Assembly (NCBI GenBank): GCA_030607715.1
Contig: JAUWJM010000077.1
Location: 1 to 7,500, forward strand
Direction: 5' to 3'
Origin: Candidatus Aerophobota bacterium
GTDB taxonomy: Bacteria; Aerophobota; Aerophobia; Aerophobales; B3-G15
Length of the DNA: 7,500 nt
The notes under the pieces: generated by a model
What the model saw: only the letters and a program-made list of their open reading frames with translations
Database searches by the model: none
Told to the model about the DNA's origin: nothing
Shown here: positions 1,491-2,777 of the stretch, in pieces
How the letters are laid out: each line of letters starts with the position of its first letter
How positions within the stretch are numbered: the stretch's first letter is position 1
Position numbers and translations under genes: made by a program

Positions 1491-2219
1491 ATGGCTTTAA
1501 TTGTTCAAAAATATGGGGGAAGCTCTTTATCTTCCCCGGAGAGAATTAAACAAGTAGCTAAAAGAATTAGTAAAACAAAATCGCAGAACAATAAGATGGT
1601 AGTGGTGGTATCAGCTATGGGAGATACTACGGATAAACTTCTGGATTTGATGTATAAAATTAACTTGAATCCTCCAAAGAGGGAGATGGATCTTTTATTA
1701 TCCACAGGTGAGGTTATCTCTACGGCTTTGCTTACTATATCTCTTCATTCTTTGGGAGAAAAAGCCATTTCTTTTACTGCTTGCCAGGGAGGGATAATTA
1801 CTGATGAAAGCCATACCAAAGCGCGTATTCAAAAAATAAATCCTCAAAAAATAATGAAAGAGATTAGAAAAGATAAAATTGTAGTGGTAGCTGGCTTTCA
1901 AGGTATAACTTCCAAAAATGCTGTAACTACTCTGGGGAGAGGTGGTTCTGATACTACTGCTATAGCCTTAGCTGCTGCTTTAAAAGCGGACATTTGTGAG
2001 ATTTACAGCGATGTAGAGGGGGTATTTACTGCTGATCCCAAAATAGTGCATAATGCGAGAAAACTCTCTAAAATCTCCTACGATGAAATGTTAGAATTAG
2101 CGAGTTCAGGAGCTAAAGTTTTAAACCTCCGTGCTGTAGAAATAGCCAAGAAATATCAGGGCTCTTTACATATTCGCTCCAGTTTTAATGAAAATCAAGG
2201 GACATTAATTACCAGTTAA
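1491..2219 (+). CDS. lysC: Aspartate kinase, catalytic domain only (separated from its ACT domains)
   Basis: Aspartokinase phosphorylates aspartate, the first step to lysine, threonine and methionine. All kinase-domain motifs are present: KYGGSSL (7-13), VVVVSAMGDTTD (37-48), STGEVISTALL (71-81), GFQGITSKNAVTTLGRGGSD (135-154) with the substrate-binding Gly-Arg-Gly-Gly-Ser-Asp, and EIYSDVEGVFTADPK (170-184), followed by SSGAKVLNLRAVEIAKKY. The chain stops at residue 242, just after GTLITS, exactly where the linker to the regulatory ACT pair starts in normal proteins of about 400 residues. The missing part is the next ORF, in the same frame, beyond a TAA and a 38-bp palindrome. The catalytic part looks intact and likely works as a free subunit. 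Family assignment is near certain; the regulation of the split enzyme is unknown. Confidence 0.95.
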   Translation: MALIVQKYGGSSLSSPERIKQVAKRISKTKSQNNKMVVVVSAMGDTTDKLLDLMYKINLNPPKREMDLLLSTGEVISTALLTISLHSLGEKAISFTACQGGIITDESHTKARIQKINPQKIMKEIRKDKIVVVAGFQGITSKNAVTTLGRGGSDTTAIALAAALKADICEIYSDVEGVFTADPKIVHNARKLSKISYDEMLELASSGAKVLNLRAVEIAKKYQGSLHIRSSFNENQGTLITS

Positions 2220-2224
2220 GGAGG
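2218..2224 (+). promoter_or_regulatory. Strong Shine-Dalgarno site upstream of the hairpin
   Basis: AAGGAGG overlaps the stop codon of the kinase ORF. It lies 13 nt before ATG 2238, which opens only MFTI then a stop, and 43 nt before ATG 2268 of the ACT-domain ORF. If the 2228-2258 hairpin folds, the effective distance to ATG 2268 drops to about 12 nt, so the hairpin could bridge the site to the real start. The site is seen; its use is inferred. Confidence 0.4.
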
Positions 2225-2261
2225 TAAACCCCGTTAGATGTTTACTATCTAACAGGGTAAA
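2224..2261. repeat. 38-bp palindromic repeat, copy 1, inside the aspartokinase gene
   Basis: The element runs GTAAACCCCGTTAGAT, GTTTACT, ATCTAACAGGGTAAA. It folds into a 12-position stem (2228-2239 with 2247-2258; one C-A mismatch at 2232/2254) with a 7-nt loop at 2240-2246. A copy differing at one base lies at 7101-7138. The flank GTAAAC is also complementary to the loop GTTTAC, so an alternative fold exists. It has stops in the kinase reading frame (TAG 2235, TAA 2250). No U tract follows, so it is not a standard intrinsic terminator. No target duplication is evident. Confidence 0.9.
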
Positions 2262-2267
2262 TTTTAT

Positions 2268-2777
2268 ATGGAATTAGCTAAATCATCAGAAGAATCAATG
2301 GAACAATTTATGGTTACCGGGATAGCTCTTAATGAAAATGAAGCAAAAATAACAGTGAAGAAAGTTTCTGATAAACCGGGAATAGCAGGTCTTCTCTTTA
2401 CCAAACTTGCTAAGGTAAATATTAATGTAGATATGATTATTCAAAGCGGTGGAAAAGAAGGTAAAAATGACATTAGTTTTACTGTAGATAAGACTGATTT
2501 AAAAGAGGTAAAGAGAATTATGGTGAAGATAAAACCATATTTAAAAGCTGAGGATGTAACCTATGATCCAGATATGGCTAAGGTATCTATAGTAGGAGCA
2601 GGAATGCGATCTCACCCCGGGGTAGCTGCCAGAATGTTTACCTGTTTAGGAAAAGCTGGAATAAATATAGATTTGATAAGCACCTCTGAAATAAAGATCT
2701 CCTGTGCAGTAAAGAAAGAGGAAGGGGTAAGAGCAGTAAAACTTATTCATCAAGAATTTGAATTAGATAAGGAGTAA
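2268..2777 (+). CDS. lysC: Aspartate kinase regulatory subunit: tandem ACT domains
   Basis: The 169-residue protein is the C-terminal regulatory half of aspartokinase. It opens with a short linker (MELAKSSEESMEQF), then VTGIALNENEAKITVKKVSD begins the first ACT domain (about 16-90, with KPGIAGLLFTKLAKVNINVDMI). The second ACT domain (about 103-165) contains AKVSIVGAGMRSHPGVAARM and INIDLISTSEIKISC. ACT pairs bind lysine or threonine and mediate feedback inhibition and dimer contacts. It has no kinase motifs. It is in the same frame as the kinase ORF, and together they total 411 residues, the usual full-enzyme size. The ATG at 2268 follows AGGG at 2254-2257; ATG 2298 (residue 11) is an alternative start. 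Bacillus lysC also makes a separate ACT-only subunit from an internal start, but there the catalytic chain keeps its own ACT domains. Confidence 0.92.
   Translation: MELAKSSEESMEQFMVTGIALNENEAKITVKKVSDKPGIAGLLFTKLAKVNINVDMIIQSGGKEGKNDISFTVDKTDLKEVKRIMVKIKPYLKAEDVTYDPDMAKVSIVGAGMRSHPGVAARMFTCLGKAGINIDLISTSEIKISCAVKKEEGVRAVKLIHQEFELDKE

What the first reader, a model, noticed from the sequence alone, without database searches (positions are those of the whole stretch)
2200..2310. Aspartokinase split into catalytic and ACT subunits at a palindromic repeat
Seen: the kinase ORF ends in TAA at 2217-2219 after GTLITS; the ACT-domain ORF opens at 2268 in the same frame; a 38-bp palindrome, also present at 7101, fills the gap. 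Both halves carry all family motifs and together total 411 residues, the normal size. Known: aspartokinases of this type are usually single chains with ACT domains fused, and Bacillus makes an extra ACT-only chain while keeping the fused one. Inference: an inserted dispersed palindrome created a two-subunit enzyme, possibly with altered feedback control. The cut sits exactly in the interdomain linker, where it would do least harm.
Basis: partly seen in the sequence, partly recalled or inferred. Interest (0 to 1): 0.82.

Follow-up and report, generated by a model that had tools for sequence, protein, structure and literature searches.

The report
Two-gene aspartokinase, split across a phylum
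In a little-known group of uncultured bacteria the enzyme that starts lysine and threonine synthesis is made from two genes, one for the catalytic part and one for the regulatory part; the split looks old and shared by the group, and the hairpin repeat in the gap came later.

Summary
In detail: the aspartokinase gene is split into a kinase-only ORF (1491-2219) and an ACT-ACT ORF (2268-2777), with a dispersed 38-bp palindrome in the gap. The proposed cause is not: of the 120 best kinase homologues listed, 115 are kinase-only; all 13 Aerophobota genomes in which both parts were found are split, none with this palindrome at the junction. Trees place the window's split in one old Aerophobota clade (one fused protein in or beside it) and a second, independent split inside Omnitrophota.

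Likely route: gene fission at an existing internal start. In 71 of 78 fused relatives the linker carries a Shine-Dalgarno plus start codon, against about 37 expected from synonymous codons; this is where the beta subunit of alpha2beta2 aspartokinases starts. In 9 of 14 Aerophobota loci the ACT frame opens with a TTG overlapping the kinase stop, behind a Shine-Dalgarno written in kinase codons.

That the two chains assemble and that ACT regulates in trans is inferred, untested. The palindrome is a low-copy dispersed repeat, also found in an Omnitrophota genome. New variant of a known kind.

The parts
1491..2219 (+). catalytic chain: aspartokinase kinase domain only, 242 aa, no ACT domain
   Evidence: Pfam AA_kinase 185 bits; NCBIfam NF005155 aspartate kinase 372.9 bits against cut-off 346; aligns to residues 1-242 of PDB 3aaw_A (421 residues)
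2217..2252 (+). three in-frame stops between the chains: TAA 2217-2219, TAG 2235-2237, TAA 2250-2252
   Evidence: sequence
2220..2224 (+). GGAGG (as AAGGAGGT overlapping the kinase stop), candidate Shine-Dalgarno of the ACT ORF
   Evidence: sequence; a comparable GGGAGG stands just before the ATG in L001
2224..2261 (.). 38-bp palindrome, dispersed repeat; hairpin arms within 2228-2258
2268..2777 (+). regulatory chain: two ACT domains, 169 aa
   Evidence: Pfam ACT_9, ACT_7, ACT; PDB beta subunits 5yei_D and 2dtj_A
2298..2300 (+). ATG of ACT residue 11, aligned with residue 1 of known beta subunits; possible alternative start
   Evidence: no strong Shine-Dalgarno just upstream
2782..3798 (+). 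asd, aspartate-semialdehyde dehydrogenase, next step of the pathway
   Evidence: NCBIfam NF011456 491.9 bits, cut-off 223; also found downstream in 8 of 14 fetched loci, the others not having it in the stretch held
7101..7138 (.). second palindrome copy; its TAA is the stop codon of the PTS EIIA ORF 6649-7104

Best explanation
A two-gene aspartokinase. A catalytic chain without ACT domains and a separate ACT-ACT chain are made from neighbouring genes upstream of asd and most likely assemble, the ACT chain acting as regulatory subunit in trans. Shown: the split, its conservation across the Aerophobota genomes held, an independent case in Omnitrophota, and a codon-level signal for an internal start in the linker of fused relatives. 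Inferred: the split arose when a frameshift or stop fell in the linker upstream of the internal beta start; the ACT chain was already made on its own, so only the ACT half of the alpha chain was lost. Inferred: the palindrome is a later arrival between the ACT gene's Shine-Dalgarno and its ATG. Not shown: assembly, activity, feedback, and which start codon is used.
For: 115 of the 120 best kinase homologues listed are kinase-only, 217-302 aa, one of them named partial. 13 of 13 Aerophobota genomes with both parts are split. Split rows cluster as one clade, plus or minus one fused protein. Omnitrophota split clade 100/100, nested among fused ones. 71 of 78 fused genes have GGAG or GAGG 4-12 nt before a start codon in the linker, against a mean of 37 from synonymous resampling. 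ACT residue 11 aligns to residue 1 of beta subunits. In all four Omnitrophota splits the ACT match begins at this Met, and L141 shows kinase and ACT overlapping in different frames. A Shine-Dalgarno in kinase codons precedes TTG at the stop in 10 of 14 Aerophobota loci; its Glu codon is GAG in 10 of 10.
Against: No protein evidence. The bootstrap keeps the 14 Aerophobota rows apart from the fused P0019 in only 2% of 200 trees, so a re-fusion, or more than one split or loss, inside the phylum is possible. 7 of 78 fused genes lack the internal Shine-Dalgarno by the rule used, and the rule accepts any start codon in the linker; at the exact aligned column 53 of 78 have one. The window itself has no strong Shine-Dalgarno before codon 11. 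Three of eight residues tied to feedback in C. glutamicum differ.
Confidence: 0.75

Rival explanations
1. The palindrome insertion itself split a fused gene in this lineage.
For: The palindrome fills 38 of the 48 gap bases and contains in-frame stops.
Against: 13 of 13 relatives with both parts are split without it; the window sits inside the split clade.
Confidence: 0.02
2. The two ORFs are still joined in translation by frameshifting or stop read-through, giving a fused chain as well.
For: In 9 of 14 loci the ORFs overlap by 8 nt in different frames, a geometry that frameshifting could use.
Against: The last kinase codon varies (GAA, GCT, GGC, GTC, GAG, GAT), so no shared slippery codon; what is shared is TTG behind a Shine-Dalgarno. 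The window would need three stops read through.
Confidence: 0.05
3. The hairpin is a regulatory RNA element that sets how much ACT chain is made, for example by bringing the upstream Shine-Dalgarno near the ATG or by hiding it.
For: GGAGG 2220-2224, hairpin 2228-2258, ATG 2268: a folded hairpin leaves 12 nt of spacing. The hairpin folds better than most shuffles (z -2.3 to -2.7; 7101 copy -4.6). A palindrome with related arms lies in the gap of the split Omnitrophota gene L142; another is visible by eye in the gap of L140.
Against: The palindrome is absent from the 13 other Aerophobota loci and is dispersed elsewhere. In the isolated 56-nt fold part of GGAGG pairs with the bases before the ATG, which would hinder rather than help.
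Confidence: 0.1
4. The kinase or ACT gene here is decaying and another aspartokinase serves the cell.
For: The gene just upstream (885-1400) is an internally shortened nicotinate phosphoribosyltransferase, so decay happens nearby.
Against: Both chains are intact over the family profiles; the six Asp-contacting residues are kept; no second strong aspartokinase match in 13 relatives.
Confidence: 0.06

Closest known systems
alpha2beta2 aspartokinases of Corynebacterium, Thermus and Pseudomonas aeruginosa (in-frame overlapping genes; PMC8690038, passages seen; PDB 3aaw/2dtj, 5yei)
   Same: A stand-alone ACT-ACT beta chain that starts at the same Met; kinase domain of the same family.
   Different: There the alpha chain keeps its own ACT domains and one gene makes both; here the kinase chain has none and there are two genes.
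Single-chain aspartokinases with fused ACT domains (78 of 80 loci)
   Same: Same domains in the same order; 411 aa in all.
   Different: One chain instead of two.
Pyrococcus paired aspartate kinase subunits (NCBIfam TIGR02078, AspKin_pair; known to me only by this model name)
   Same: An aspartokinase annotated as made of gene-encoded subunits.
   Different: Our kinase scores 117 bits against a cut-off of 242, so it is not a member; the partner here is an ACT chain.
REP-like dispersed palindromes (for the repeat only; general knowledge)
   Same: Short hairpin, few copies, mostly outside ORFs (14 of 17 copies examined).
   Different: No Y1 transposase found beside a copy; only two loose matches with 5 mismatches in 8 Y1 loci.

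Membership tests
Aspartokinase (NCBIfam NF005155, TIGR00657) | kinase-domain score over the curated cut-off | tested here: met
   kinase chain alone: 372.9 bits (cut-off 346) and 310.1 bits (cut-off 208.7)
Aspartokinase (NCBIfam NF005155, TIGR00657) | Asp-contacting residues | tested here: met
   S41, T47, E74, R150, G152, S153 kept in the alignment to 3aaw; residues named in PMC8690038, read with an offset of 18 that is my inference
Aspartokinase (NCBIfam NF005155, TIGR00657) | enzyme activity | not testable with these tools
   needs protein
alpha2beta2 aspartokinase | ACT-only beta chain starting at the linker Met | tested here: met
   residue 11 aligns to residue 1 of 5yei_D and 2dtj_A; the ORF itself opens 10 codons earlier
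alpha2beta2 aspartokinase | alpha chain with C-terminal ACT domains in the same frame | tested here: not met
   kinase ORF ends at 2219; three in-frame stops before the ACT ORF
alpha2beta2 aspartokinase | heterotetramer with feedback inhibition | not testable with these tools
   5 of 8 residues tied to feedback kept (A279, Q298, I375, S381, E382); I272V, T361A, N372G differ (residues from the table passage, mapped on the alignment)
TIGR02078 AspKin_pair | score over the cut-off | tested here: not met
   117.2 bits against 242.4
REP-like element moved by a Y1 transposase | several copies in one genome, outside genes | tested here: met
   1-6 places in each of 8 of 17 genomes, backward control 0; 14 of 17 copies examined lie outside ORFs of 80 codons or more (15 of the 25 places were examined, plus the window's 2)
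REP-like element moved by a Y1 transposase | Y1 transposase with a copy beside it | tested here: inconclusive
   Y1_Tnp in 7 of 17 genomes, palindrome in 8, both in 4; none beside a Y1 gene in 8 loci apart from two loose matches with 5 mismatches

The most novel reading that the evidence does not exclude
The internal beta start encoded in the linker of most fused aspartokinases of this family is a built-in fission point. At least twice, once early in a whole phylum, it let the regulatory half become its own gene, giving an aspartokinase whose catalytic subunit carries no allosteric domain and is controlled only in trans. In the window a mobile hairpin then settled inside the new ribosome-binding region.
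Probability: 0.5. Interest if true: 0.62.

Novelty: new variant of a known kind. Interest (0 to 1): 0.52.

Why it matters
It gives a natural experiment on uncoupling catalytic from regulatory domains in a textbook feedback enzyme, with a whole phylum on one side. It offers a concrete, testable route for gene fission: an internal translation start that is already in use. The internal Shine-Dalgarno plus start in 71 of 78 fused genes suggests that the alpha/beta arrangement may be much wider than the few species in which it was studied. It also warns annotators that a kinase-only aspartokinase beside an ACT gene need not be a broken gene.

Tried and rejected
Palindrome as cause of the split: rejected. 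Intrinsic terminator: neither copy is among the 6 terminator-like sites of the window. Known RNA family: 0 Rfam matches at gathering scores. Programmed frameshift: no shared slippery codon. Assembly error: nearest homologues have the same chain lengths. Palindrome beside a Y1 transposase: not found in 8 loci, apart from two loose matches. Second aspartokinase in the 13 Aerophobota genomes: apart from the split pair the matches have E of 3e-7 or worse in open frames of 241-448 aa, as expected of other amino acid kinases.

Other phyla, for the extent of the split. Phylum of L013's genome: 149 genomes, 110 with a match at 1e-30 (many of them distant aspartokinase-like genes), no linker split seen; G144 is broken inside the kinase beside unreadable bases. 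Phylum of L003's genome (titled Nitrospirae): 118 genomes, 107 with a match at 1e-60, no linker split seen, 3 partial rows (G341, G380, G393) not examined. Phylum of L036's genome (titled Omnitrophota): 145 genomes, 139 with a match, 4 split; 3 genomes with contig-edge fragments (G302, G221, G270) and 3 rows with one stop inside (G315, G301, G271) not examined.

Rows dropped: for the 118-row tree, 114 split homologues were thinned to 47 and 78 fused loci to 53, P0117 was left out as short, and 12 of the 13 Aerophobota genome loci were long enough. In the 65-row tree 24 of 78 fused loci and 20 of the 132 full-length Omnitrophota matches were used.

Paper searches for a split aspartokinase: none describing one in the listings seen; two searches returned no paper. 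Only passages of PMC8690038 and PMC10464499 were read. The library lacks most subscription papers, so this is not proof of novelty. The AU test of one joint clade for both splits did not finish; the tree was used instead. The repeat scan of L140 was run on the wrong stretch (the locus lies reversed), so the L140 gap hairpin rests on the eye alone.

Full report
What is there. The window, close to Candidatus Aerophobetes by its nearest named hits, carries a kinase ORF at 1491-2219, an ACT-ACT ORF at 2268-2777 and asd at 2782-3798, all on the + strand. The kinase aligns to residues 1-242 of the 421-residue C. glutamicum aspartokinase, the ACT ORF to its regulatory half. The 48-nt gap holds a 38-bp palindrome whose second copy lies at 7101-7138. 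Three in-frame stops separate the ORFs.

The split is shared. Of the 120 best kinase homologues listed (8000 were scored), 115 carry the kinase domain only and 5 are fused. Of 80 loci taken from species genomes, 78 are fused and 2 split; the two are the two records titled Aerophobetes. In the phylum of L001's genome 17 genomes are held: 13 have both parts and all 13 are split; G011 has only a kinase fragment at a contig end, G003 and G017 only weak matches, G009 none. The exact palindrome arms occur in none of the 13 loci. The genomes are 0.9-2.4 Mb with no completeness given, so 'only one aspartokinase' is supported, not proven.

Phylogeny. In a quick tree of 118 kinases the 60 split rows and one fused protein, P0019, form one side of a branch (SH-aLRT 98). 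Holding the 60 split rows together without P0019 gave a likelihood 26 units higher than the free search and AU p 0.77. In the careful tree of 65 rows on kinase plus ACT (406 columns), 14 Aerophobota rows and P0019 group at 100/100, P0019 sits inside on weak support (90/62), and only 2% of 200 bootstrap trees keep it outside. P0019 is therefore a re-fusion or an unsplit relic; the two analyses disagree on which, and more than one event inside the phylum is not excluded. Four split rows from the phylum of L036 (Omnitrophota; L139-L142) form a clade at 100/100, nested among fused ones (98/85 and 99/97). That split is separate from the one in Aerophobota.

How it could split. In alpha2beta2 aspartokinases an ACT-only beta chain comes from an in-frame overlapping gene (PMC8690038, passage seen). 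The window's ACT residue 11 aligns to residue 1 of the beta chains of P. aeruginosa and C. glutamicum. All 78 fused loci have a start codon in the linker region (53 at the exact aligned column), and 71 have GGAG or GAGG 4-12 nt before one. Resampling synonymous codons from the same genes gives 37.2 (sd 3.7, max 49 of 300) or 36.7 (sd 3.8, max 49 of 500). With 53 thinned genes it is 47 against 25.7 (sd 3.2, max 35), and other windows of those genes give 87 of 1404. By a rougher placing 15 of 20 fused Omnitrophota genes have it. The excess of GAG over GAA alone is modest (74 of 126 against 62.2 expected, sd 5.1). In the four Omnitrophota splits the ACT match begins at this Met. In L140 and L141 it is the only start codon of the open frame; L139 and L142 have one more ATG a few codons upstream. 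L141 has the ACT frame opening 16 nt before the end of the kinase stop in another frame, as one frameshift in the linker would leave it.

Translation signals today. In 9 of 14 Aerophobota loci (13 plus the window) the ACT frame can open with a TTG that overlaps the kinase stop by 8 nt; L093 has this segment twice, 194 nt apart, with the ACT gene behind the second. In these ten the kinase's own codons before Gly-Thr spell a Shine-Dalgarno 9-12 nt before that TTG (AAGGAGG in 7). The Glu codon is GAG in 10 of 10, while GAG is 28-60% of Glu codons in the same genes. L094 and L099 also have other start codons in frame. The window, L001, L002 and L089 have a gap instead. In L001 GGGAGG stands just before the ATG. 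In the window AAGGAGGT overlaps the stop and the palindrome lies between it and the ATG; skipping the hairpin leaves 12 nt, but in the isolated 56-nt fold part of GGAGG pairs with bases before the ATG. Which start the window uses is open.

The palindrome. In its window form (loop partly free) it occurs in 1 of 17 Aerophobota genomes; with up to three mismatches and a free loop, in 8 of 17 at 1-6 places each (25 in all), backward control 0. Of 17 distinct copies examined (the window's 2 and 15 of those 25), 5 supply an ORF's stop codon on the listed strand and 3 lie inside an ORF of 80 codons or more. G181, an Omnitrophota genome with split aspartokinase, holds a 31-nt copy identical to window 2228-2258, loop included; binning error in that MAG is not excluded. 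A palindrome with related arms sits in the kinase-ACT gap of L142. It looks like a mobile repeat; its mover was not found.

Function. The kinase keeps S41, T47, E74, R150, G152 and S153 in the alignment to 3aaw, matching the Asp-contacting residues named for the C. pekinense enzyme if its numbering is offset by 18, my reading. Of eight residues in a table of C. glutamicum feedback mutants, five are kept and I272V, T361A and N372G differ. Feedback may be kept in some form; its effectors cannot be told. Assembly of the two chains is inferred from the alpha2beta2 enzymes, not tested.

Verdict. No paper describing it was seen in the listings of eight searches.

Noticed in passing
window 885-1400: The 171-aa ORF upstream of the kinase is an internally shortened nicotinate phosphoribosyltransferase (NF006415 150 bits, cut-off 243). 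In 12 of 14 Aerophobota loci a long version is found (10 complete at 388-412 codons stop to stop, 2 cut at the contig edge); the window keeps about the first 64, a middle 70 and the last 32 residues in one open frame. No other protein of this form among 88 hits.
   Followed up: partly
G181:C112:4116-4146 and window 2228-2258: A 31-nt palindrome, loop included, is identical between an Omnitrophota genome and the window.
   Followed up: partly
L003-L080, linker of fused aspartokinase genes: Internal Shine-Dalgarno plus start codon in 71 of 78 genes from many phyla: the alpha/beta arrangement may be near-universal in this family.
   Followed up: partly
L142:2263-2308 and the gap of L140: Hairpins of other sequence also lie in the kinase-ACT gap of split Omnitrophota genes (L142; L140 by eye).
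   Followed up: partly
L093:1740-1955: A 22-nt segment with the ribosome-binding site and TTG is duplicated 194 nt apart around inserted repeats, keeping the ACT start intact.
   Followed up: no
window 79-483: Small stand-alone retropepsin-like aspartic protease (gag-asp_proteas, Asp_protease_2).
   Followed up: no
window 829-858 and 6005-6032: Two perfect TTGACA/TATAAT promoter-like sites, the first ahead of the gene that precedes the kinase.
   Followed up: no
window 5760-5806: Three tandem 16-nt units of the type GTAGTCGGATAGTCC behind a phosphoribosyltransferase-domain ORF.
   Followed up: no
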